From Paludibacter propionicigenes WB4 (GTDB lineage Bacteria > Bacteroidota > Bacteroidia > Bacteroidales > Paludibacteraceae): 64,000 nt of DNA. This document shows positions 5,874 through 64,000 of the stretch, one piece after another. The position numbers were made by a program, and so were the translations under genes. How positions within the stretch are numbered: the first letter of the stretch is position 1; every line of letters starts with the position of its first letter. The stretch spans positions 2,728,001 through 2,792,000 of the forward strand of contig NC_014734.1 of the NCBI RefSeq assembly GCF_000183135.1, written 5' to 3'. Under the pieces are notes generated by a model that was not told where the DNA came from, made no database searches, and saw only the letters and a program-made list of their open reading frames with translations.

Positions 5874-6039
5874 AATCAGGGAAAAAAAGAATTAAAAATA
5901 TTTTGCAAATATAGCTTTTTAAAGTTTTCTTTGTTAGCTTTGTAACATTAAATTTCTGATTATATTGTCTAAAACCCTCAATAAATCAGACCTAAAAAAT
6001 GAACTTTAGGATTTTGAAAATGAAACAAAGAATAAAACA

Positions 6040-6792
6040 GTGATATCAAAAAATAAAATAAAACTAATCAATAGTCTGTCTCAAAAGAAGTTTCGGGACG
6101 AAACAGGTCTTTTTGTGGCCGAAGGTACAAAACTGGTACTTGACCTTGCTCAGGCTTTTCAATGCTCAATATTGGCTGCAACTGCTGCCTGGCTTGAGGA
6201 ATACTCCCGGCTCGAAGCTGACGAGATTATTGAAATTGATGAAAACGAGCTGAGTAAAATTTCCAATCAGAAAAGTCCTCAGGGTGTTCTGGCCGTTTTT
6301 GCGAAACCAAATCACAGTTGGGACAAAGATTCGCTGAAAGAAAAACTAAGTCTGGCACTGGACGATGTACAGGATCCTGGCAACCTTGGAACTATTATTC
6401 GAATAGCCGACTGGTTTGGAATTACTGATATTTTTTGTTCAACGCATTCGGCTGATGCTTATAACACAAAAACCGTGCAAGCAACCATGGGCGCTCTCGC
6501 TCGCGTGAAAGTGCATACTGTCAGTTTGGTTGATTTTCTTCTATCTGTTGCGCATGAAATTCCTGTTTATGGCACATTTATGGATGGCGAAAATATCTAT
6601 GATAAGACCTTGACTAAGCATGGAATTATTGTGATGGGAAATGAAGGAAACGGAATTTCGGACGAAATTGAAAAGCTCGTAACCGAGCGATTGCTTCTCC
6701 CTAATTTCCCGCTAGGGCAGGCTACTTCCGAGTCGCTGAACGTAGGTGTTGCTACAGCATTGGTTTGTGCCGAATTCAGAAGAAGATCTTAA
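6040..6792 (+). CDS. TrmH/SpoU family RNA methyltransferase
   Basis: 250 residues. The three SPOUT motifs are visible: DDVQDPGNLGTIIRIADW (about 108-125), IVMGNEGNGIS (about 199-209) and LPNFPLGQATSESLNVGVA (about 220-238), which form the knotted SAM site of 2'-O-methyltransferases. The N-terminal part matches the SpoU substrate-binding domain, so the target is probably rRNA or tRNA. The start is a GTG; the ATG 20 bases upstream is out of frame and reads into a TGA overlapping the start. A TAGCTTTG box at 5935-5942 may be the -7 element, giving a leader of about 90 bases. Confidence 0.88.
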   Translation: MISKNKIKLINSLSQKKFRDETGLFVAEGTKLVLDLAQAFQCSILAATAAWLEEYSRLEADEIIEIDENELSKISNQKSPQGVLAVFAKPNHSWDKDSLKEKLSLALDDVQDPGNLGTIIRIADWFGITDIFCSTHSADAYNTKTVQATMGALARVKVHTVSLVDFLLSVAHEIPVYGTFMDGENIYDKTLTKHGIIVMGNEGNGISDEIEKLVTERLLLPNFPLGQATSESLNVGVATALVCAEFRRRS

Positions 6793-6799
6793 AATAAAT

Positions 6800-6846
6800 C
6801 CCACTTAGCATGCAAGTTCAATTTGTGGATTTGCATACTGAGTGGG
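6800..6846. terminator. Hairpin between convergent genes, probable bidirectional terminator
   Basis: A 16-base inverted repeat (6800-6815 with 6831-6846; two G-T wobbles) lies between the ends of the methyltransferase gene and the convergent barrel gene. The T-tracts on both sides are weak and broken, so efficiency is uncertain. Confidence 0.6.
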
Positions 6847-6873
6847 AAAATTCTTATTGCTTTTAGTTGATTG

Positions 6874-9360
6874 TTAATCAACACCATCCATATTCATGTC
6901 CTGCATATCGCCGGCACCTTCTTTTTTCTTCATTTGATCGGTTTTCTTGGCTTTCATAGTTCCAAAATTGTAACTAGCCGTTAAGCCGAACATTCTACCG
7001 TGGAAATAGTTAGAGGAAGTTTGGTAAAATCCGCTACCCGAAGTTGTTGATTTGAAGCTTGAAGAATTCAATATGTCTCTGACATTTACGCTGATACTTA
7101 ATTTTCTGTCCATGAAAGTTTTACGTAACCCCAGATCCAGTGTGTACCTTTCGTTTTGTTTCCCTTGTGCAATTAGCTGAGGAGATTCGTATTCTCCGGA
7201 GATTTGACCTGAAAGGGTTTTGCTGAGCATGAAATTAGCCAGTACGTTGGCACTCCACGAAAAATTATCCTGACCGGGAATGGTAGTTTGGATTGCTGTG
7301 TTATATGGATTGATATACGTGGCCGCATCCAGTTTGCTATAATAAACATTCACAGATGAAGTCAGATTGAGTATTTTAAACAGTCTGTTCTTAGAGATAA
7401 GTTCCAATCCGGTATTTTGCGATTTAGCAATATTCATGAATGTGCTTTCCATTATACCGTTGTGCAGAAATCGCACGTTCTGAATTACGTTGTCAGTTGA
7501 ACGGTAGTAAACCGACGCGGACAGTGATTGGGTATCCCAACTTTTGATGTAATTTAATTCCATAGCAGATGCATACTGAGGCATTAAATCAGGGTTTCCG
7601 TATGAAATATTGGTTGAATCAGAAAGGTTTCTGTACGGGTTAATCTGTTGACCACGCGGGCGATTTACTCTGTTGGTGTAGTTAAGCTGTAATTCGGCGT
7701 TGTTAGCAAGGTTGTAGGACAAATAAAGACTCGGGAAAACATGGAATAATGTTTTAGCGGGAATTGTTTGCACGGTATCAATGGCTGAACTTACTATCGA
7801 TTTCGTCGTATTTGTCGATTTCTTTTGTAAATACTCGGCACGCAATCCAATCTGATAAGACAACTTATTAATCCGATTACCATAAGTCAGATAGCCTGCA
7901 TGTATTTGCTCTTTGTAATCAAAATTGTCGTAATACGAAGGAATTACAGCATTTGTTAAATTGTTTGTACCGTCGGTTGTACTTAGAGTGTTGTTTATAT
8001 TGCTTTGCCAGCCGGCTTCTAATTTACTATCGTCTGTCAATTTATTGGTGTAATCCACTTTAAATTCAATACCTTTATTTTTTCCGTCTGTGCTTTGAGA
8101 TATATTTGAGTTGTTTGTACTAGCCAATGCATCGTTTGTAAGATACATATTGTCGCTTGTTCGGTTGTGGTACGAGTATGACATGCTGGCATTCAAATTT
8201 GTTCCTTTCTTGTCAAATTCGTGTCTGTAATCCAAACTCAGATTGAGGCTTGGTCGTGTTCCGGTTCCGGTGTTTGTTCGACTGTAGTTACGAAGTACGC
8301 TAGCAGGATTTGAACGTAAATTGGTGAGAAGATAACTGGAATTGTTTTCGGAATTTCCGCTTCCGGACATCCCAAATCCCGATAGTCCTATTGTGTTTTT
8401 TTTGTCCAAATGATAATCGACACCTGCCCGCATAAATATTCCTGAAAAAGAATTGGACATCGTTGAGTGCTGGTTCAATAATGTGCTGTCTGTTCCGTTG
8501 AAATTAGTTCGGTCGGTGTTTCCGCCACCATTGAATGACATATTTCGGTAGCCCAGGTTTATGTAGCTGTCAAATTTACTGTTACTGAAATTGATACTGG
8601 CTCCCAAATTACCCCCTAATTTTCCGCCATCAGGATAAGTTACCCCTGCTGAAACACTTCCGTAATATCCTGCTTTACGATTCTGTTTCATCACGATATT
8701 GATGATACCTGCCGAGCCCTCGGGATTAAATTTGGCTGATGGATTTGTCATGATTTCTACTGACTCTATACTCTCTGCAGGCAACTGCTGCAATACCTGA
8801 GCGCGGTTATCGGCAGTCAAACCGGAAGCTTTGCCATTGATCCATACTTCCACATTACCATCTTTTCGCAGTGACACATTGCCATCGTTGTCAACAGAAA
8901 CTGATGGGATATTTTTTAAAACATCCGATGCTGAACCGCCTGCTGCAGCAATATTTTGATCGACAGAAAACACTTTTTTATCAATTTCGAACCGCATTTG
9001 GGAGCTTTGTGCTACCACTTCTACTTCTTTCAAAGATTTGCTGTCTTCGTTTAGTTGGATTGTCCCCAGATTTAATGGGGCACCAACTATTTCCAATGAC
9101 TTATTTACTGTAGTATAACCAACGTAGCTAATACGCAGACTATATTTTCCATTGGCAACCGAAGGGATGCTGAATACTCCTTTATTATCAGTGGCTACAC
9201 CTGCTACGGGTGTTTGCGAACCCTGTTTAAATAAAGCTACGTTTACAAAATCAAGTGGAGACTGGTCTCCGGCATCCACTATGGTTCCTTTGATGCCACC
9301 AGACGCCATAAGGGGTAGGCTCATTACTGAGACTAAAAAGAAAACAACAATTTTTTTCAT
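6874..9360 (-). CDS. Outer-membrane beta-barrel protein with CarboxypepD_reg and plug domains (TonB-receptor-like)
   Basis: 828 residues from the ATG at 9360, chosen because MKKIVVFFLVSVMSLPLMA is a clean signal peptide; an ATG 63 bases further upstream would bury it. Order: signal peptide, CarboxypepD_reg domain (about 23-105), plug domain with the conserved NPSAKFNPEGSAGIINIVM block, then a barrel of the OMP_b-brl_3 type and a Lys-rich tail. Such proteins resemble TonB-dependent receptors but many lack a defined ligand. No SusD partner is adjacent, so a classical glycan-uptake pair is unlikely. A strong terminator (9476-9504) separates it from pyk upstream. Confidence 0.85.
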   Translation of the reverse strand: MKKIVVFFLVSVMSLPLMASGGIKGTIVDAGDQSPLDFVNVALFKQGSQTPVAGVATDNKGVFSIPSVANGKYSLRISYVGYTTVNKSLEIVGAPLNLGTIQLNEDSKSLKEVEVVAQSSQMRFEIDKKVFSVDQNIAAAGGSASDVLKNIPSVSVDNDGNVSLRKDGNVEVWINGKASGLTADNRAQVLQQLPAESIESVEIMTNPSAKFNPEGSAGIINIVMKQNRKAGYYGSVSAGVTYPDGGKLGGNLGASINFSNSKFDSYINLGYRNMSFNGGGNTDRTNFNGTDSTLLNQHSTMSNSFSGIFMRAGVDYHLDKKNTIGLSGFGMSGSGNSENNSSYLLTNLRSNPASVLRNYSRTNTGTGTRPSLNLSLDYRHEFDKKGTNLNASMSYSYHNRTSDNMYLTNDALASTNNSNISQSTDGKNKGIEFKVDYTNKLTDDSKLEAGWQSNINNTLSTTDGTNNLTNAVIPSYYDNFDYKEQIHAGYLTYGNRINKLSYQIGLRAEYLQKKSTNTTKSIVSSAIDTVQTIPAKTLFHVFPSLYLSYNLANNAELQLNYTNRVNRPRGQQINPYRNLSDSTNISYGNPDLMPQYASAMELNYIKSWDTQSLSASVYYRSTDNVIQNVRFLHNGIMESTFMNIAKSQNTGLELISKNRLFKILNLTSSVNVYYSKLDAATYINPYNTAIQTTIPGQDNFSWSANVLANFMLSKTLSGQISGEYESPQLIAQGKQNERYTLDLGLRKTFMDRKLSISVNVRDILNSSSFKSTTSGSGFYQTSSNYFHGRMFGLTASYNFGTMKAKKTDQMKKKEGAGDMQDMNMDGVD

Positions 9361-52256: not shown

Positions 52257-54137
52257 TTACTTATCCAGTTGATTTACCGATTCAACCAAGCGCACAAACT
52301 CTCTGCGATAACCGTGAGTATCGTTTCCTATGCCGTTGTTGGCAAGTTCTATGACTTTATCATACGAACTGTTTCCCTTGAAGTCCGATTCGCGAAGCAA
52401 CTGTCCGAACATAGATACCGCCATGATAAATTTAAAGTCGGACGATGGTTTTTTATTGATATCGCTCATTAAAACCGGAACTTCCATTTTATTGCTGCTG
52501 TCGCTGTTTGGGAATTTATAACGAAGTTTTACGGTGAGCAGTTCCGATGAATTGTTGGGTTGTACGTTGTTGGTTGTGTTATTGTTCGTTTGATATTTCA
52601 GGTTGTCCACTCCACCATAGGTGTTTTTTACTCCGGCAGGGATGATTTCATAGAGTGCCGTAACGGTATGTCCTGAGCCTAGTTCGCCTGCATCTTTGGT
52701 GTCGTCGTTGAAATCTTCTTTGTTCAGTAAGCGGCTTTCATATCCTATCAGTCGGTAAGCATTTACCTGAGCCGGATTAAATTCCACCTGAATCTTTACA
52801 TCCTTGGCTACAGTGTACATTGTACTGCCAAATTCGTTGACCAATACTTTGTTGGCTTCCTGTATGTTGTCGATATAAGCATGATTCCCGTTTCCTTTTT
52901 CGGCGAGAATTTGCAACTTATTGTCTTTGTAGTTCCCCATGCCATAGCCCAGTACAGTAAGATAAACGCCTGTTTTTCGTTTTGATTCTATCAGACTTTC
53001 CAGCTCATTGTTGCTGGAAACACCTACGTTGAAGTCGCCATCTGTACAAAGCACGATACGGTTGTTTCCATTCTCTATAAAGTTCTTTTCGGCTATTTTG
53101 TAGGCCAGCTGTATTCCTGCTCCTCCGGCAGTAGAGCCTCCTGCATGTAGGCCATCCACTGCTTCCATTATCTTTTGTTTATCCGTTCCTTCGGTCGATT
53201 CGAGCACAACGCCTGCAGCTCCGGCATAAACTACTATAGCTACACGGTCGGTTTTACGCAGGTTATTAGTCAGTAGCTTGATTGATGATTTGACCAGCTC
53301 CAGTTTGTTTGGAACATCCATAGAACCCGACACGTCGAGCAGAAAAACAAAATTAGAGGCAGGAAGATTCTCTGACGGAATCTCGCGGGCTTTTACTCCT
53401 ATTTTTACTAAGCGGTGAGTAGCGTCCCAGGGGCAGATGCTTGTTTCGGTATTGATACTAACGGGATCTTTGCCGGTAGGTTTCGGGTAATCATAGCTGA
53501 AATAGTTGATCAGTTCTTCAACACGGATGGCATCTTTCGGTGGTTTCTGACCCATGTTTATCATTCGGCGCATATTGCCGTAAGAGGCAGCGTCCACATC
53601 CAGCGAAAACGTAGATAGTGCCTGTTCTTTGGCCGAGAGGAAACGATTTTCTTTGTAACTTCCATATTCTTCGGCATCGGGCTGAACTCGTTTTATCATT
53701 ACAGGCATAAATGACGATGGCTGATTGTAATTCGAGACCTTTACATCAGCAACATCGGCCACGCTGATAGCACCGACTGTAGAAATCATTCTTTGCGATG
53801 CGTAACCTACTACCACTACTTCTTCCAATGCTTTTTGATCGGGAGTGAGGGCAACATCAATATATTCGCTTTTTACGACTACTTCCTTCTTTTCATAACC
53901 AATGAACGAGATAACCAATTTTTTTCCGTGTTGGGTGGTGATGCTGTAACGTCCTTTGGTATCGGTCACTGTTCCTTTTTTCGATCCTTTTTCCGTTACC
54001 GTAGCACCCACGATTAATTCGCGGGTTTGTGCATCGGTTACAATTCCTGTTACCTGAATTTGTTGAGCAAAAGTGTTGGCTGTAAAAATGAAAATCGTAC
54101 AGACGATGACCAGTAATTTGTTGTTTCTTGTTTTCAT
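52257..54137 (-). CDS. VWA-domain lipoprotein-like protein with CarboxypepD_reg domain and receptor-type motif
   Basis: 626 residues: signal peptide (1-24), CarboxypepD_reg domain (about 27-98), the motif VVVVGYASQR (107-116), a VWF-A N-terminal domain, a von Willebrand A domain whose metal site is FLLDVSGSMD (about residue 268), and a DUF3520-type C-terminal part. This is the YfbK-like family of Bacteroidota. The VVVGYASQR motif normally marks the N-terminus of SusC-type receptors; here no barrel follows. A protein encoded divergently at 54963 carries the same motif. Confidence 0.9.
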   Translation of the reverse strand: MKTRNNKLLVIVCTIFIFTANTFAQQIQVTGIVTDAQTRELIVGATVTEKGSKKGTVTDTKGRYSITTQHGKKLVISFIGYEKKEVVVKSEYIDVALTPDQKALEEVVVVGYASQRMISTVGAISVADVADVKVSNYNQPSSFMPVMIKRVQPDAEEYGSYKENRFLSAKEQALSTFSLDVDAASYGNMRRMINMGQKPPKDAIRVEELINYFSYDYPKPTGKDPVSINTETSICPWDATHRLVKIGVKAREIPSENLPASNFVFLLDVSGSMDVPNKLELVKSSIKLLTNNLRKTDRVAIVVYAGAAGVVLESTEGTDKQKIMEAVDGLHAGGSTAGGAGIQLAYKIAEKNFIENGNNRIVLCTDGDFNVGVSSNNELESLIESKRKTGVYLTVLGYGMGNYKDNKLQILAEKGNGNHAYIDNIQEANKVLVNEFGSTMYTVAKDVKIQVEFNPAQVNAYRLIGYESRLLNKEDFNDDTKDAGELGSGHTVTALYEIIPAGVKNTYGGVDNLKYQTNNNTTNNVQPNNSSELLTVKLRYKFPNSDSSNKMEVPVLMSDINKKPSSDFKFIMAVSMFGQLLRESDFKGNSSYDKVIELANNGIGNDTHGYRREFVRLVESVNQLDK

Positions 54138-54237
54138 GACATTGAGTTTTTTATATGAATAACTTTAATCCGGAAATTCTTTATAACCATTAGATACATT
54201 TTCCATTCAAATTCCATAAACAGCGGCAATTTTTTTT

Positions 54238-54245
54238 TACTTTTG
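54238..54245 (+). promoter_or_regulatory. -7 element of the ECF sigma gene
   Basis: TACTTTTG matches TAnnTTTG; start codon about 30 bases downstream. No matching -33 box. Confidence 0.45.
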
Positions 54246-54278
54246 TGCAATTAAATAAATAATACAACTCATATCTAG

Positions 54279-54860
54279 TTGAAAGCCAAAGAGAAAATAT
54301 CGGAATATTCTGAAGAAAATTTGCTTCGCACTTTTACCGAAAGTGGCGACACTGTTTTTCTGGGAGAATTGTACAGACGATATATTCCGTTGGTATATGG
54401 TTTGTGTCTGAAATATCTCAATCAGAAAGAAGCGGCACAAGATGCGGTGATGGATATTTTTGGGGTGCTGGCAGACAAAGTGCCGCAGTATGAGATTAAG
54501 AACTTCAATACCTGGCTGTACAGTGTGGCAAAAAACCATTGTTTGCACGTATTGCGCAAAGACAAAAACGTCAGTATGGTTAATATTGAAGATGTGCTTG
54601 TGGAAAATCAAGCCATTTTGACTCTAACGGATAAACCGCAGTCGCAGGAAGAGATGGAAGCGCTGTCTTATTGTATGGACACCTTGCCCGAGGAGCAAAA
54701 GCGAAGCATTCAGTATTTTTTTTACGACGAAAAATCCTATGCCGACATTGTGGATCTGACGGGATACGCGCTCAGCAAAGTGAAGAGTTATATTCAGAAC
54801 GGAAAACGAAACCTGAAAAGTTGCATGATAAAGGTTTTAAAATTAAACCCGGAGCGCTGA
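54279..54860 (+). CDS. ECF-type RNA polymerase sigma factor
   Basis: 193 residues from a TTG start; an in-frame TAG sits directly before it and no other start precedes the sigma-2 region. Region 2 is TVFLGELYRRYIPLVYGLCLKYLN...DIF and region 4 is LPEEQKRSIQYFFYDEKSYADIVDLTGYALSKVKSYIQNGKRNLK. Divergent from the VWA gene (141-base gap) and followed by the membrane protein at 54963. Confidence 0.9.
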   Translation: MKAKEKISEYSEENLLRTFTESGDTVFLGELYRRYIPLVYGLCLKYLNQKEAAQDAVMDIFGVLADKVPQYEIKNFNTWLYSVAKNHCLHVLRKDKNVSMVNIEDVLVENQAILTLTDKPQSQEEMEALSYCMDTLPEEQKRSIQYFFYDEKSYADIVDLTGYALSKVKSYIQNGKRNLKSCMIKVLKLNPER

Positions 54861-54962
54861 CGGAGATAAACACGCTACGATTGATCGATAAACCGGTATA
54901 GAATAATAAAACAAAACGATACAGACTCAGCTCTCACGGGGAGAACAGAAGTTGCAGACAAT

Positions 54963-56228
54963 ATGAGGTTAATAGAGTACATACAAGGTAAACGCCGCGG
55001 GAAAGAAGCCAATAAGCTCGAACGCGAAGCCATGAATGATCCTTTTCTACAGGATGCCATTGATGGTTTTGATGCTGTGGAGGGCAACCATGTACAGGAT
55101 ATTGATGACCTTGAACGCAGTATCATGCAGCAAGCCACGCGGCGCAAGCGCTTTGTACCGTACAGGGCGTGGGCAATAGGAGTGGCAGCCTCTGTTGTGC
55201 TGATGCTGGGCATAGGGAGTCTGTTTTACTTCCGCACCGAACAACCTAAGGTCATTGCACTGCATCCACCCGTGCGTGTAACCCTGCCGCCTGCCGATAC
55301 TGCCCGAAAAAGCATCCCTGCTCCCGAAGAACGTGCGGTGGCACAACATCTGGATAAAAAACTCCGGAAACCCGTCGCTGTACTCAGTGTGCCACCGGTT
55401 GCCGATAGCAACGCCGAACCGATAAAGACTCAGGAAGAGATTAACGAAAGCAAGCAGCATATCAGTGTGTCCGATGTATCTCCGGGATATGACATTGCCG
55501 ATGTGCATTCCACCAAAGACATTGCCGATGTAATGTCGTTCAGGCCGGTAGATAGTAATAAAACGCAGGCGGATAAAGTACAGGCTGTTTCTGTCAATGG
55601 AAGTCCCGTCCAAAAAGAATCTGCCACCCGAACCATTACAAAGCTGTCGGACGTGAAAGCACCATCGGGGGTTATTACCGGGCAGGTGCTTGATGATGCA
55701 GGCGAACCGCTGATAGGAGCCACCGTAAAAGTAAAAGGTATGAACAATGGCACCATTACCAATGCCGAAGGTAAGTTTGAACTTCCTGCTCAGCTCAACG
55801 GTAAGGACAAACTTGTGGCATCTTATATCGGATACCAAAACGAAGAAGTCCCTGCTGCGGGCAATTCGTACATTATCAAACTCAAACCGTCCAATTCGGC
55901 ACTGAGCGAAGTAGTGGTTGTGGGTTATGCATCGCAACGGAAATCATCTGTAGTAGGATCTATACGGGAAACTCCCGTTACGGGTGAAAAATTTGGCGAA
56001 AAAGAGTTTGAGAAATACTATAAAACCCACCATCGTGCCGGACTTTGCGACCGGACAGAATATGAATTGAAAGCCCGCTTCCGTATTGATGCGAATGGTA
56101 AACCTCTTCAAATAGAAGTAACTCAGTCGCCTTGCCCGGAAATAGAACAGGAATTCACCGCACTGCTTATGGGCAGCCCTGCATGGACTAAAACCAACCG
56201 CACCGTAAAACTTACCATCCGCATGTAA
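54963..56228 (+). CDS. Single-pass membrane protein with CarboxypepD_reg, VVVVGYASQR motif and TonB-C-like end; possible anti-sigma
   Basis: 421 residues. A cytoplasmic N-terminal 65 residues, one transmembrane helix (69-90), a variable linker, a CarboxypepD_reg domain (about 236-310), VVVVGYASQR (about 316-325), and a C-terminal stretch (about 345-421) resembling TonB/energy-transducer C-domains. Following an ECF sigma gene, it could be its membrane-bound anti-sigma; the N-terminal part is not a recognised zinc-finger or FecR fold, so this is inference. Confidence 0.7.
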   Translation: MRLIEYIQGKRRGKEANKLEREAMNDPFLQDAIDGFDAVEGNHVQDIDDLERSIMQQATRRKRFVPYRAWAIGVAASVVLMLGIGSLFYFRTEQPKVIALHPPVRVTLPPADTARKSIPAPEERAVAQHLDKKLRKPVAVLSVPPVADSNAEPIKTQEEINESKQHISVSDVSPGYDIADVHSTKDIADVMSFRPVDSNKTQADKVQAVSVNGSPVQKESATRTITKLSDVKAPSGVITGQVLDDAGEPLIGATVKVKGMNNGTITNAEGKFELPAQLNGKDKLVASYIGYQNEEVPAAGNSYIIKLKPSNSALSEVVVVGYASQRKSSVVGSIRETPVTGEKFGEKEFEKYYKTHHRAGLCDRTEYELKARFRIDANGKPLQIEVTQSPCPEIEQEFTALLMGSPAWTKTNRTVKLTIRM

Positions 56229-59447: not shown

Positions 59448-59640
59448 GAGGGATATTGTTATAGGTCTAAATTCTTTTGATTTTAAAGATTAAAAGGTCG
59501 ATATAGTTTTTAGACGATAATGATTTGAGGAAAATGATTAAACTATAAAATGTAAGCGAGTTAAGTTTAGAATCTAATGTTGTTATAAAATTTGCAAATA
59601 TCTAGTAATTAAATAATAAACCAATAAAATAACTAATATT

Positions 59641-60516
59641 ATGAGCAAAAAACAGAAAGAAAAAGAATTTTATTTTTATGTAATAAACATCAAGTTAAGA
59701 GATAAAGAAAGTAAAAAAGACTTAGAACATACTGATTATACAAGAATTTTTAAAAGTCTATTTAATAATAGGGTGCATAAGCGATCATCAAACACTAAGC
59801 ATTGCATCATTAAGAATCTTTTTGAAGAAATAGAAAATGATGAAGTACTGTATTTATCTGGACTTATAGCTCAGTTTACCTACATTGAAAATGAAAAATG
59901 GTTCAATGTTAAATCAATGGATATTGATGAAGAATTCGCAGCTCCAGAAGGTTTATTCCCAGATGCTAAAATGACAGAATATGTTTTTATCCCAAAAGCA
60001 CATCGTTTTTGTTACAAGATAACTAGTGAATTTCAAACTAATCCTTATCCAATAAAAAACTTTTTTGAAAAGGCATTAAATGAAGTGTGCAAATCTAATG
60101 AATATGTGCAAGTAGATGTAGAAACAGATGCATCTACTATTGAAATGATTCTTGCATCCCCTGTAATAAAAAAACTAATTATAGACATTAATTACTCAAA
60201 CTTTGACAGTGGAAATGTACTAAAAAGATTTGTAGACGATGATGTTAGGCAGTCTAATACTTCTAAGCTAAAAATAGAGGCAACACAAAAACCTGGCGTA
60301 TCAATAGATGTAAAAGAGAGTAAGATACTATCTGGTGCAATATCATCTTCTTTAAGTAATGGTGAGACTCAAGCTAGAGTCATTGATGAAAAAGGGAAAA
60401 CACATACAATTAATACATCAGACTTTCCATTAAAGGATCATGTATTTGGATTTCCGAGCAGATTTAATGCATTAGTTCATAATAAAATTATGGAAATGTT
60501 CAGAAATGGAAACTAA
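59641..60516 (+). CDS. DUF4747-like protein, first gene of a putative defence operon
   Basis: 291 residues, no signal peptide or membrane helix. It opens FYFYVINIKLRDKESKKDL and contains YVFIPKAHRFCYKI (about 117-130) and VDVETDASTIEMILASPVIKKLIIDI (about 159-184). This order resembles DUF4747, a family I recall from defence-type neighbourhoods; I am not certain of the match. Its last 11 bases overlap the next gene. Codon use is very AT-rich compared with genes left of 59,100. Confidence 0.6.
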   Translation: MSKKQKEKEFYFYVINIKLRDKESKKDLEHTDYTRIFKSLFNNRVHKRSSNTKHCIIKNLFEEIENDEVLYLSGLIAQFTYIENEKWFNVKSMDIDEEFAAPEGLFPDAKMTEYVFIPKAHRFCYKITSEFQTNPYPIKNFFEKALNEVCKSNEYVQVDVETDASTIEMILASPVIKKLIIDINYSNFDSGNVLKRFVDDDVRQSNTSKLKIEATQKPGVSIDVKESKILSGAISSSLSNGETQARVIDEKGKTHTINTSDFPLKDHVFGFPSRFNALVHNKIMEMFRNGN

Positions 60517-61135
60517 ATATACTTATGAAAACATAAAGGATAATTTCGTTGTAGGACTTAAAGGTATTTTTAAAATTGTCGGATTAAAGGAAATTATTTT
60601 TAGTGTAGTAAATATACTTTCCATTAGTTTGTCTATCATTATTATAATCTGCTCATTTATTTTCGAGTTAGATGAATATAAGTTGATAGTTGAGATAGTT
60701 GGACTGATGGTGAATTTTTTACCAAGTATACTCGGTTTCACTATTGCCGGTTATACTTTAGTAGTTGGTTTTATTCAATCTGGCATGTTAAGTAAAATAT
60801 CAGAACCAATAGAAGATAGCAAATATAGTCTTTATCAGAATATGTCATCTAATTTTGCTTTAAATGTGATTTTTCAAGGGTTTGCTTTGATATTTGCTTT
60901 TTTTGTTCACTTTATTATTTATTTTGATAATGAAATAATTTCTAATATAGAAATATATTATTACGATATAATAAATAAATTAGGTCTATTTTTAATTCTT
61001 TACTGGTTCATAATATCACTCTTTTTGGTTATTCAAATAACTATCAATATATTTAATTTCAGTCAACTCCATCACTATTTCATAAATAAAGAAAAGTTGG
61101 ATAAAATCAATAATCTAAAAAAAACAAAGAAATGA
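60506..61135 (+). CDS. Four-helix membrane protein of the putative defence operon
   Basis: 209 residues with transmembrane segments at about 33-52, 60-85, 115-140 and 155-180 and basic C-terminus (NNLKKTKK). No known family recognised. Overlaps the preceding gene by 11 bases and the next by four (ATGA), so all are read from one message. A membrane component could anchor the system or act as an effector that disturbs the membrane; neither is shown. Confidence 0.75.
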   Translation: METKYTYENIKDNFVVGLKGIFKIVGLKEIIFSVVNILSISLSIIIIICSFIFELDEYKLIVEIVGLMVNFLPSILGFTIAGYTLVVGFIQSGMLSKISEPIEDSKYSLYQNMSSNFALNVIFQGFALIFAFFVHFIIYFDNEIISNIEIYYYDIINKLGLFLILYWFIISLFLVIQITINIFNFSQLHHYFINKEKLDKINNLKKTKK

Positions 61136-62178
61136 GTATTAATTATTCAAGTGTAAAGTTAAATAAGTTTATTGTTCATCATGTTGAGAACAAAGAAAGT
61201 ATTAGACCTTTTATTCTTTCCTCAAATGAAACCACAGTTGATGATGAACAGTTAAGAGGAATTATTATAGAGTATTTTTTTTCTTCATTTAAAAATGATA
61301 ATTATTATCATTTTATTCATAATTCAAATATAGAAATGAATGAAATATATTCATACACTAATGAAATATTTGACAATAATAGTACCTTTTTAGAAAACTC
61401 AATTAATATTGCCAAATATCTCTCAGATTGTTCAATTCATCCAAAAATAAAAAATGGAAAAGTTTTCATTGCCTATTTTGACAACTGTATTATTGATGAT
61501 ATAGTAACTGACGCTATTGGCATTTTCAAAATTGAAAATCTTGATTATTTTTTGAAAACTCATGAATCAAACAAACAATATGATATAAACTATGAGCAAG
61601 GCATTAATATTGAAAAAATAGACAAAGGATGTCTTATATTTAACTTAGAAAAGGGAAATGGTAATATTGTATCTATAATTGATAGGACGAATAAAAGTAT
61701 AGAAGCAAAGTATTGGACTGAAAACTTTTTACACGTTGAACAAAGAAAAGACGAGTACTATAATACTCAAAATGTACTGTCAATGTGTAAGAACTTTATC
61801 AAAGAAGGTCTTCCGGAAGAATTGGATATATCAAAAGCAGATCAGGTAGACTTTTTAAATAAGGCGGTAGAGTACTTCAAAAAGAATGAAGACTTTGATA
61901 TGTCAGACTTTAAAAAAGTAGTAATGGGTAAACCGGAGGTTGCTCAGAGTTTTGATCAATATAAATCGGAGTATGAATTTGCTCGTGAACTAGCTGTTCT
62001 GGATAGGTTCTCTATTTCAGAAGCAGCAGTAAAGAAACAAGCACGTGCTTTAAAAAGCGTCATTAAACTGGATAAGAACTTTCATATCTATGTGCATGGT
62101 GACAGAGATATGATTGAGCAGGGAACAGATGAAGAAGGAAGGAAGTATTATAAGATTTATTATAATCAGGAGAGCTAA
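61132..62178 (+). CDS. Nucleoid-associated protein NdpA/YejK family
   Basis: 348 residues. The whole length matches the Bacteroidota form of the 37-kDa nucleoid-associated protein: YSSVKLNKFIVHHVENK at the start, IKNGKVFIAYFDNCIIDD, IEKIDKGCLIFNLE, YYNTQNVLSMCKNFI, and SVIKLDKNFHIYVHGDRDMIEQG near the end. E. coli YejK binds nucleoid and its exact role is unclear. Here it sits between a membrane protein and an ATPase rather than alone, which is unusual. Shares one base (TAATG) with the ATPase start. Confidence 0.82.
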   Translation: MSINYSSVKLNKFIVHHVENKESIRPFILSSNETTVDDEQLRGIIIEYFFSSFKNDNYYHFIHNSNIEMNEIYSYTNEIFDNNSTFLENSINIAKYLSDCSIHPKIKNGKVFIAYFDNCIIDDIVTDAIGIFKIENLDYFLKTHESNKQYDINYEQGINIEKIDKGCLIFNLEKGNGNIVSIIDRTNKSIEAKYWTENFLHVEQRKDEYYNTQNVLSMCKNFIKEGLPEELDISKADQVDFLNKAVEYFKKNEDFDMSDFKKVVMGKPEVAQSFDQYKSEYEFARELAVLDRFSISEAAVKKQARALKSVIKLDKNFHIYVHGDRDMIEQGTDEEGRKYYKIYYNQES

Positions 62179-63419
62179 TGTTTGATTCAAATTTTCAAAT
62201 ACCCACAGAATTACTCTCATTCCGAAATACATTACCAGAAGATGTAAATATCATTGTTGGAGAGAATGGAAGCGGAAAAAGTTATATGCTCTCACAATTG
62301 GCTGAAAATCATTTAAAATCAAATAATAAAGATGTTGTAGTCATTGCCAATTCAATTCATGATAAATTTAAACCTCATCACTCCATAAGATTTCACCCAC
62401 TAAAAAATAGTGTTGGGAGAAAATATACTAAAGATGTTTTAAAGAAATCACTCATTAACATGAGTAAAGATTCTTCAAAGAGAATTAACTTCGCTACAAA
62501 CGTACTTAAATATGTTGGATTTGATTCAAAAATTGGATTTAGACTTCACTTCAAAAATACATCTCTAAATGATATAGATGATATATTCGATTTGAATGAT
62601 GAGTTATTTCTAAAATATAAATTACAAGATATTGATATTGAGAAAGAAGAACGGGAAGATATTTATTCTGAATTATTGAAATATCTAAATTACTCTATCA
62701 AAAACAAAAAAGTCTACAATCAAAGAACTTACAACGAATTCTATGATATAATTTGGTTTAATATGAATGATTATGAATCTTCGTATAAATTTTCATTAAT
62801 CAATTTATTTAAATGGGAATATATATTAGTTAGAAATAAGATAATAGAACCCATTGATGTTTTTCTCTCAAAAAACGACCAAATTATTCCATTGTTGTCA
62901 GCTAGTTCGGGTGAGTTAGCATTAATTACAAGTTTTTTATATATCACATCAATTATAAATGAAAAAACTGTAATCTTAATTGATGAACCCGAAAATAGTT
63001 TGCATCCTAAATGGCAAAGAGAATATGTAAAATTACTTGTTGACATTGTGTACTTATATCAACCCCATATAGTTATTGCAACTCACTCACCATTAATAGT
63101 AAGTGGTGCTGAATTAAATGTAAAAGGAGCAAAAATATATAAAGCCCAAAATTTTGAACTTGAACTACAAGAAAAAAGAACGCTAAACATTGAAGAGATA
63201 TATTATGATTTATTTGATACAATTATGCCCGAAAATCGAATACTATCTAATATTATTGTAAATCAATTGAATAAGTTAGAAAAGAAAGAGATTAGTCTAG
63301 AGAATTTTCTTAAATATCTTGATCCAATTTATGATAATGTTCGTGATAAGCGTCAAATAAAGATGTTAGATGGCATTTCAAAATTAGCTGAAAAAATTGT
63401 TCTTCAAAGAAAAAATTAG
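62178..63419 (+). CDS. ABC/SMC-type AAA ATPase (Septu PtuA-like)
   Basis: 413 residues. Walker A is GENGSGKS (28-35), the ABC signature region SASSGELAL (about 241-249), Walker B VILIDEPENSLHPKWQ (about 264-279), and the H-loop IATHSP (about 299-304). This is the set shared by RecF/SMC-like and OLD-like ATPases used in defence. An HNH gene follows four bases later, as in Septu (PtuA-PtuB) and related systems. The mid-section is larger than the minimal domain and helical. Confidence 0.85.
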   Translation: MFDSNFQIPTELLSFRNTLPEDVNIIVGENGSGKSYMLSQLAENHLKSNNKDVVVIANSIHDKFKPHHSIRFHPLKNSVGRKYTKDVLKKSLINMSKDSSKRINFATNVLKYVGFDSKIGFRLHFKNTSLNDIDDIFDLNDELFLKYKLQDIDIEKEEREDIYSELLKYLNYSIKNKKVYNQRTYNEFYDIIWFNMNDYESSYKFSLINLFKWEYILVRNKIIEPIDVFLSKNDQIIPLLSASSGELALITSFLYITSIINEKTVILIDEPENSLHPKWQREYVKLLVDIVYLYQPHIVIATHSPLIVSGAELNVKGAKIYKAQNFELELQEKRTLNIEEIYYDLFDTIMPENRILSNIIVNQLNKLEKKEISLENFLKYLDPIYDNVRDKRQIKMLDGISKLAEKIVLQRKN

Positions 63420-63423
63420 TATT

Positions 63424-64000
63424 ATGTTTACTCAAGAAGACATAGATTTAATTAGAGTTGTCAAAGATGAAGGTGGCAAAATTTGGGAAAATGAGAAAAT
63501 AAAACCCGTCAAAGATAAAATTAAAAGATATTTTAGAAATAGAAGAAACCAATGTTGTTACTGTCGAAGAGAATTTGTTGGTGAATTTTCAATGGTTATT
63601 GATATAGAACATATTTTGCCTAAGTCTGATATTGATTTTCGTAAATATATGTTTCATCCATATAATTTGAATATCTCTTGTAAAAGATGTAACATGGAAA
63701 TTAAGGGTGCAAATATATCATTTATTACTTCAAGAGAAGATATTCTGTCAAATCCTTTTGAATCGAAAAAATATAAATTTATACATCCTAATTTAGATGA
63801 TTATAAAACTCATATTAATCTAATAGTACAAATAAATGACGACATTAAACTTATCAAATATAATGTGTTGACAAATGGTAAAGGTCAGTATACATATGAT
63901 TATTTTGAGTTGAAAAATCTTGAAATTGATCAGGTTAATGAAGCACAAGGAATTCTTGAAACTAAAATAAGTAATGATTTTTCCGATGAAGTTCAAAAAG
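63424..64000 (+). CDS. HNH endonuclease (PtuB-like), C-terminus cut by window edge
   Basis: Translated from the ATG at 63424, 192 residues are visible. CCYC (44-47), IEHILPKS with H63, and C86/C89 in SCKRCN form the zinc-supported HNH core typical of defence nucleases. Four bases separate it from the ATPase gene. Its full length, and whether more genes follow, cannot be seen. Confidence 0.85.
   Translation, partial: MFTQEDIDLIRVVKDEGGKIWENEKIKPVKDKIKRYFRNRRNQCCYCRREFVGEFSMVIDIEHILPKSDIDFRKYMFHPYNLNISCKRCNMEIKGANISFITSREDILSNPFESKKYKFIHPNLDDYKTHINLIVQINDDIKLIKYNVLTNGKGQYTYDYFELKNLEIDQVNEAQGILETKISNDFSDEVQK

What the first reader, a model, noticed from the sequence alone, without database searches (positions are those of the whole stretch)
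59641..64000. Putative undescribed defence operon: DUF4747-like + 4-TM + NdpA + ATPase + HNH
Five genes overlap or abut (11, 4 and 1 bases shared, then a 4-base gap), all on one strand and far more AT-rich than the genes to the left. The last two are an SMC-type ATPase and an HNH nuclease, the core of Septu-like anti-phage systems. They are joined to a nucleoid-associated NdpA/YejK protein, a membrane protein and a DUF4747-like protein, a combination I do not know from any named system. NdpA binds DNA or the nucleoid, so it may help the nuclease tell invading from host DNA; the membrane protein may be an anchor or effector.
Basis: partly seen in the sequence, partly recalled or inferred. Interest (0 to 1): 0.88.

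Follow-up and report, generated by a model that had tools for sequence, protein, structure and literature searches.

The report
RexAB-type phage defence joined to Septu
Five overlapping bacterial genes look like two known kinds of virus-defence module, a RexAB-like membrane alarm and a Septu nuclease, joined by a nucleoid-associated protein that also turns up as the third gene of other RexAB-like pairs.

Summary
In detail: five co-directional genes at 59641-64026 (the last ends 26 bases past the window), sharing 11, 4 and 1 bases, then a 4-base gap, at 24-29% G+C against 41%. The order is DUF4747, 4-TM, NA37/NdpA, PtuA, PtuB. The last two are Septu by PADLOC. The first two are not a mystery pair: the predicted DUF4747 fold has lambda RexA as its best PDB match, and RexA-like + 4-TM protein is the RexAB/CarolAnn/Sbash type of abortive infection. 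The same five-gene order was found once more, in a 'viral' contig (L090) whose first gene has no detectable sequence similarity but again a RexA/RdgC-like model, and whose PtuA matches another PADLOC model best. The shorter set RexA-like + TM + NA37 was found in 13 of 180 NA37 loci (11 of 178 without two picked for it); 0 of 318 control genes have that arrangement. On the NA37 tree it needs 13 changes, at least 7 forced by well supported branches. So NA37 is a recurrent third gene of RexAB-type pairs, mostly in Bacteroidota, and PtuAB an occasional addition. I file it as a new variant of a known kind. Defence, DNA sensing and cooperation of the halves are inferred, not shown.

The parts
59641..60516 (+). 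Gene 1: DUF4747 (PF15931) protein, 291 aa, RexA/RdgC-like predicted fold; probable DNA-associated sensor
60506..61135 (+). Gene 2: 209-aa membrane protein with four hydrophobic segments, RexB-like by position and topology
   Evidence: Hydropathy segments starting at residues 30, 60, 121, 162; 29% identical over 140 aa to the protein after DUF4747 on a Hymenobacter plasmid; phrog_20580 5.2e-9
61132..62178 (+). Gene 3: NA37 / NdpA / YejK-family nucleoid-associated protein, 348 aa
   Evidence: PF04245 115 bits, cut-off 24.6; only copy in the genome; third gene of RexA-like + TM pairs in 13 of 180 NA37 loci examined
62178..63419 (+). Gene 4: PtuA, ABC/SMC-type ATPase of Septu, 413 aa; Walker A GENGSGKS, signature SSGE, Walker B VILIDEP, THSP
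   Evidence: PADLOC PDLC00303 PtuA 5.5e-104; motifs; 42% identical over 407 columns to a PtuA in G394 that lacks these partners
63424..64000 (+). Gene 5: PtuB, HNH nuclease of Septu, 200 aa (gene ends at 64026, outside the window)
   Evidence: PADLOC PDLC00352 PtuB 4.2e-68 on the 192 aa inside the window; CCYC, EHI, CKRC motifs; end read in L003

Best explanation
A composite abortive-infection operon: a RexAB-type set with NA37 as third gene, plus Septu, under one transcript. Gene 1 (RexA fold) sits on DNA and senses a phage replication or recombination product or a phage protein. It triggers gene 2, the 4-TM RexB-like protein, which damages the membrane and stops growth. NA37 is an accessory of the RexA-like protein that tunes its association with nucleoid or phage DNA, and so sets the threshold. 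PtuAB is a second, ATP-gated nuclease effector (tRNA-Tyr or nicked DNA in studied relatives). Shown here: the genes and their tight packing, the RexA-like fold of the gene-1 model, Septu identity of genes 4-5, and repeated association of NA37 with RexA-like + TM pairs. Inferred: co-transcription, defence, DNA binding, the trigger, channel activity, NA37's role, and any cooperation between the halves.
Confidence: 0.62

Rival explanations
1. Two independent defence systems stacked in one transcript: a RexAB-type system with NA37 and an ordinary Septu. They share expression but not mechanism. (This overlaps with the best explanation, which does not require cooperation.)
For: PtuAB relatives of the window's pair occur without these partners in G394 and in 5 of 5 viral contigs with upstream sequence; relatives of the L090 PtuAB follow other gene sets in G116 and G134; the triad occurs without PtuAB in 12 of its 13 loci outside the window, one of which (L011) has only 302 bases after NA37.
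Against: NA37 and ptuA share a base (TAATG), which suggests coupled translation; the same order with differently classed parts in L090 suggests more than one joining event at the same junction.
Confidence: 0.4
2. NA37 is a transcriptional or anti-silencing regulator of this AT-rich operon, as NdpA2 is for an integrative element, and not part of the defence machine.
For: NdpA2 acts with TprA on element genes in Pseudomonas aeruginosa and alters MvaT binding (PMC8565334, passages); the operon is 24-29% G+C.
Against: Repeated association with RexA-like + TM pairs is more specific than a general anti-silencer needs; none of the five genes has a transcription-regulator family hit.
Confidence: 0.2
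3. One reading: a Septu-like nuclease guided by NdpA to tell invading from host DNA, with the membrane protein as anchor.
For: NA37 directly precedes ptuA in the window and L090.
Against: Only 1 of 180 NA37 loci examined had PtuAB after it, against 13 with a RexA-like + TM pair before it; PtuAB in studied systems can cut tRNA-Tyr (PMC13096335, PMC11555353), though one Septu was reported to act on nicked DNA.
Confidence: 0.1
4. A housekeeping or metabolic operon with no role in defence.
For: NA37 is the only copy in this genome; no PF00589 integrase within about 336 kb.
Against: Patchy distribution, A+T-rich composition, PtuAB models.
Confidence: 0.03

Closest known systems
RexAB-type abortive infection (lambda RexAB, Sbash gp30/gp31, CarolAnn gp44/gp43, Butters gp30/gp31, Pseudomonas putida RexABpp)
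   Same: RexA-like cytoplasmic protein followed by a small 4-TM protein; DUF4747 named in the actinophage papers from weak HHpred matches, here supported by a model whose best PDB match is RexA
   Different: Adds NA37 and PtuAB; no prophage or tyrosine integrase recognised around it; host appears to be in Bacteroidota; PMC12894663 counts five described RexAB-like systems, and the sections and passages I read give none an NA37 or PtuAB partner
Septu (PtuA/PtuB)
   Same: Adjacent PtuA ATPase and PtuB HNH nuclease with full motifs
   Different: Placed as genes 4-5 behind RexAB-type genes and NA37
Retron Ec78 / Eco7 (type I-A), where PtuAB is the effector of another sensor
   Same: PtuAB controlled by an added module, a precedent for PtuAB as a borrowed effector (PMC11555353, passages)
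   Different: No reverse transcriptase among the family hits of the five genes; PtuA scores 33.8 bits against a cut-off of 500 for the Ec78 model
NdpA/YejK proteins on mobile elements (NdpA2 of PAPI-1)
   Same: NA37-family protein
   Different: There a partner of transcription regulators (PMC8565334, passages); here third gene of a RexAB-type set
NA37 next to Gabija in L020 (Paludibacter MAG), found here
   Same: Soluble gene + TM gene + NA37 + defence ATPase + second defence gene
   Different: The soluble and TM proteins (353 and 510 aa) differ in size and were not linked to RexAB; GajA/GajB instead of PtuA/PtuB

Membership tests
RexAB-type system | RexA-fold cytoplasmic protein | tested here: met
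RexAB-type system | Adjacent small membrane protein with four TM segments | tested here: met
   Four hydrophobic segments in 209 aa, hydropathy scan only
RexAB-type system | RexA-like protein binds DNA | not testable with these tools
   Reported for RexA and three homologues (PMC11077077, abstract and discussion)
RexAB-type system | Phage exclusion through membrane damage by the RexB-like protein | not testable with these tools
   Needs phage assays; Butters is described as differing in this respect (PMC12894663)
Septu | Adjacent PtuA and PtuB | tested here: met
   PDLC00303 5.5e-104 and PDLC00352 4.2e-68, 4-base gap
Septu | Intact ATPase and HNH motifs | tested here: met
   GENGSGKS, SSGE, VILIDEP, THSP; CCYC, EHI, CKRC (motif roles recalled). 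The HNH label itself scores just under the Pfam cut-off
Septu | Anti-phage activity | not testable with these tools
   Needs plaque assays
Retron type I-A (Ec78) | Ec78-type PtuA and PtuB | tested here: not met
   33.8 bits against cut-off 500, and 17.7 against 150
NA37 / NdpA (PF04245) | Score over the family cut-off | tested here: met
   115 bits against 24.6
Fixed core (housekeeping) genes | Present in nearly all relatives | tested here: not met
   NA37 in 2 of 24 genomes of the genus within the 40 relatives searched, 133 of 344 of the order; DUF4747 1 of 12 of the genus

The most novel reading that the evidence does not exclude
RexAB-type systems, at least in Bacteroidota, can have a dedicated third protein, NA37, that together with the RexA-fold protein forms a DNA-bound sensor, and this sensor can be wired to interchangeable effectors: the 4-TM protein as the standard one, and PtuAB as well in the window and L090. 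One alarm then gates both a membrane pore and a tRNA/DNA nuclease.
Probability: 0.28. Interest if true: 0.82.

Novelty: new variant of a known kind. Interest (0 to 1): 0.62.

Why it matters
How RexA is triggered has stayed open for decades; the P. putida paper (PMC12894663, discussion) says that the exact mechanism by which lambda RexAB is activated remains unknown. A third gene that has become associated with RexA-like pairs many times on the NA37 tree is a concrete, testable handle on that question. It would also give the NdpA/YejK family a possible role in phage defence, extend RexAB-type systems to Bacteroidota, and, if the halves cooperate, show a second case besides retrons where PtuAB is an effector of another sensor.

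Tried and rejected
Profile comparison of DUF4747 with the other upstream families showed no sequence link (A3 with A4, A5 with A3), so only structure was used to join gene 1 of the window and of L090. PDB sequence searches with the NA37 alignment (E up to 1) and the DUF4747 alignment (E up to 10) gave nothing. Viral-contig scans with the window NA37 and with DUF4747 found no relative; scans with L090 gene 1 and L090 PtuA found only the same contig, and with alignment A5 one more (L145, pair without NA37). tblastn of DUF4747 found no match in the phage records and one in the plasmids. Empty-site test: in the four relatives fetched by a neighbouring gene (L160-L163), the only neighbours matched were the three genes at window 52257-56228, none nearer the operon, and L161 and L162 soon reach a contig end, so no clean empty site could be read: inconclusive. 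Terminator scan of L003 7000-13000 found none; promoter-like sites were no more than in shuffles. No TAnnTTTG motif (recalled as the Bacteroidetes promoter element) in the 190 bases upstream; a TAnnnTTTG at 59586 is not taken as evidence. L028 has a weak PtuA-like hit (E 5e-4) 3.2 kb from NA37, not counted. L077 and L083 have a 6-segment TM gene before NA37 and were not counted as triads.

Counting rules: 'triad' means a 240-420 aa gene without hydrophobic segment, then a 130-270 aa gene with at least 3, then NA37, same strand, gaps -45 to +120 bases. The 180 loci are 80 genome contigs (the best 80 of 560 confirmed, so near the query), 39 of 41 viral contigs with an NA37 ORF, 58 of 59 sampled order loci, L230, and L153 and L155; some order loci look like the same contigs as genome loci (equal contig lengths, e.g. 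L189 and L022), and L153/L155 were picked because they hold the RexA-like gene. Some loci are cut close to NA37. The order sample took alternate rows of the first 119 of the list (own genome skipped). The control uses 165 NA37 genes with over 1500 bases upstream (12 triads, L153/L155 included) against 318 other genes; without those two it would be 10 of 163 (arithmetic, p not recomputed). Alignments: NA37 29 of the 120 listed of 5558 hits; DUF4747 54 of 59 (one near-copy and four others dropped); L090-type gene 1 70 of 95 (near-copies, short and some others dropped).

Full report
1. What is there. Window 59641-64026 holds five co-directional genes: DUF4747 (291 aa), a 209-aa membrane protein, NA37/NdpA (348 aa), PtuA (413 aa) and PtuB (200 aa), sharing 11, 4 and 1 bases and then 4 bases apart. 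They are 24-29% G+C against 40.7% for window 1-59600. The window is bases 2728001-2792000 of a 3.69-Mb single-contig genome. A sixth ORF of 110 aa begins 4 bases after ptuB, outside the window, without any family match. Further on lie a gene with sub-threshold DUF6705 and JAB hits and a DUF559 gene; no PF00589 integrase match is nearer than about 336 kb (other recombinases not sought).

3. Genes 4 and 5 are Septu. PtuA and PtuB match PADLOC models at 5.5e-104 and 4.2e-68, with complete motifs. They are not the Ec78 retron type. PtuAB cut or deplete tRNA-Tyr in retron-Eco7 and in Septu EcB88, while another Septu is cited there as acting on nicked DNA (PMC11555353 and PMC13096335, passages).

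4. The order recurs once. Among NA37 relatives one contig of the viral collection, L090 (IMGVR_UViG_3300021318_000005, 59,522 bases), has 339-aa protein + 219-aa 4-TM protein + NA37 + PtuA + PtuB, all on one strand. Its gene 1 has no profile similarity to DUF4747, yet its model (71 rows, pLDDT 86.2) finds RdgC first (E 1.9e-4) and RexA second (E 0.019) by Foldseek, and Iml3 8.4, CENP-N 8.4 and RexA 8.2 by VIA-align, the RexA alignment with a large rmsd of 15.3 A. Its PtuA is best matched by PDLC00265, that of the window by PDLC00303, the same model as for the PtuA in G394; window and G394 PtuA are 42% identical over 407 columns, window and L090 PtuA 31% over 160. So PtuAB of two subfamilies stands behind NA37, which suggests two joinings or a swap. 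Relatives of the window PtuAB in G394 and in 5 of the 5 viral contigs with upstream sequence have no RexA-like, NA37 or small TM gene upstream (a sixth contig, L237, starts at PtuA); relatives of the L090 PtuA in G116 and G134 follow other gene sets, which by eye look like restriction systems (not tested). The L090-type and window-type PtuA are rare: 2 of 375 and 2 of 395 genomes of the class.

5. The shorter set is more common. A script asked which NA37 genes follow a RexA-sized soluble gene and a small TM gene: 8 of 80 genome contigs, 1 of 39 viral contigs, 2 of 58 loci sampled from the window's order, 0 of 1 own-genus locus, plus L153 and L155, which were picked for the RexA-like gene: 13 of 180. 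The TM genes have 3 or 4 segments. The upstream genes fall into three families besides DUF4747: A3 (4 loci; sub-threshold DUF6731 hits in 2 of the 3 tested), A4 (4 loci) and A5 (5 loci). With the same rule, 12 of 165 NA37 genes but 0 of 318 other genes of 300-420 aa in the same loci qualify (p = 2e-6). On a tree of 175 NA37 proteins the 14 triad members (window included) need 13 changes of state, at least 7 forced by starred branches, and are no more clustered than shuffled labels (mean 13.6; 154 of 500 shuffles as low). Gains and losses cannot be told apart, but repeated association is plain. In reverse, 7 of 395 genomes of the class have an A5-type gene; a TM gene follows in 7 of 7 (one pair broken, one TM gene read as two ORFs), NA37 in 2 of 7. 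So the RexA-like + TM pair is the constant part, NA37 a recurrent third gene, PtuAB occasional.

6. NA37 is not housekeeping. The nearest NA37 proteins on the tree, L020 and L230 (the other same-genus genome), lie behind a different soluble + TM pair; in L020 Gabija genes GajA and GajB follow (PADLOC 8e-169 and 5.5e-123). Other downstream genes in triads include RhuM-family proteins (L039, L043) and a type I restriction gene (L018, 101 bases on).

7. Mechanism. Most likely the RexA-fold protein senses infection on DNA and opens the 4-TM protein, with NA37 tuning the RexA-like protein's hold on DNA and PtuAB as a second effector. A precedent for such tuning is NdpA2, which did not shift DNA alone but raised MvaT affinity (PMC8565334, passages). 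The main rival is two separate defence systems in one transcript; I give it 0.4, and the composite reading in its general form (RexAB-type set with NA37 plus Septu in one defence operon, cooperation not required) 0.62; these overlap. A specific sensor shared by both effectors has 0.28.

8. Novelty. Searches of open-licence full texts for DUF4747 (5 papers; passages read in all 5), NdpA with phage and defense system (3, listing only), RexA + RexB + nucleoid-associated (1, by its title on DNA looping), PF04245 (1, by its title on clustering), RexAB + Septu (5, listing only) and a four-term search (0) showed no description of RexAB with NA37 or PtuAB in what I saw; most subscription papers and all bioRxiv preprints are not held. 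I therefore rate it a new variant of a known kind.

Noticed in passing
L003:12031-12363 (just past the window end): Sixth ORF of 110 aa, 4 bases after ptuB and less A+T-rich (32.7% G+C), no family match in four libraries; may or may not belong to the operon.
   Followed up: partly
L020:2143-8904: Paludibacter MAG: 353-aa protein + 510-aa TM protein + NA37 + GajA + GajB, another NA37 set leading into a known defence system; similar first three genes are in L230 of the window's own genus.
   Followed up: partly
L154:2393-5792: RexA-like + 4-TM pair followed, after about 600 bases, by a bSEFIR defence protein (PADLOC 3.1e-70).
   Followed up: partly
L232, L234 and L235 at about 5960-7760: PtuAB related to the window's pair sits among genes that look by eye like phage tail genes, i.e. 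Septu carried as cargo by phages.
   Followed up: no
L008:268-3349: NA37 preceded by a 349-aa protein that by eye resembles a distant NA37 and a 328-aa protein that by eye resembles RelA/SpoT; not tested.
   Followed up: no
L039:7940-8932 and L043:11009-11995: RhuM-family genes (PF13310; the L039 one also matches PADLOC PDC-S05) start 3 bases after NA37 in two triads, a possible alternative added module.
   Followed up: partly
window 52257-56228: A von Willebrand-like protein (by eye) and an anti-sigma-like protein (by eye) both carry a stretch with VVVVGYASQR, around a sigma-factor-like gene; the three-gene set is matched in four of four relatives fetched.
   Followed up: no
L159:9633-10597, - strand: A RexA-like gene of the A5 family that is broken (one TAA inside the match), with a short TM ORF behind it: a decaying copy.
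   Followed up: no
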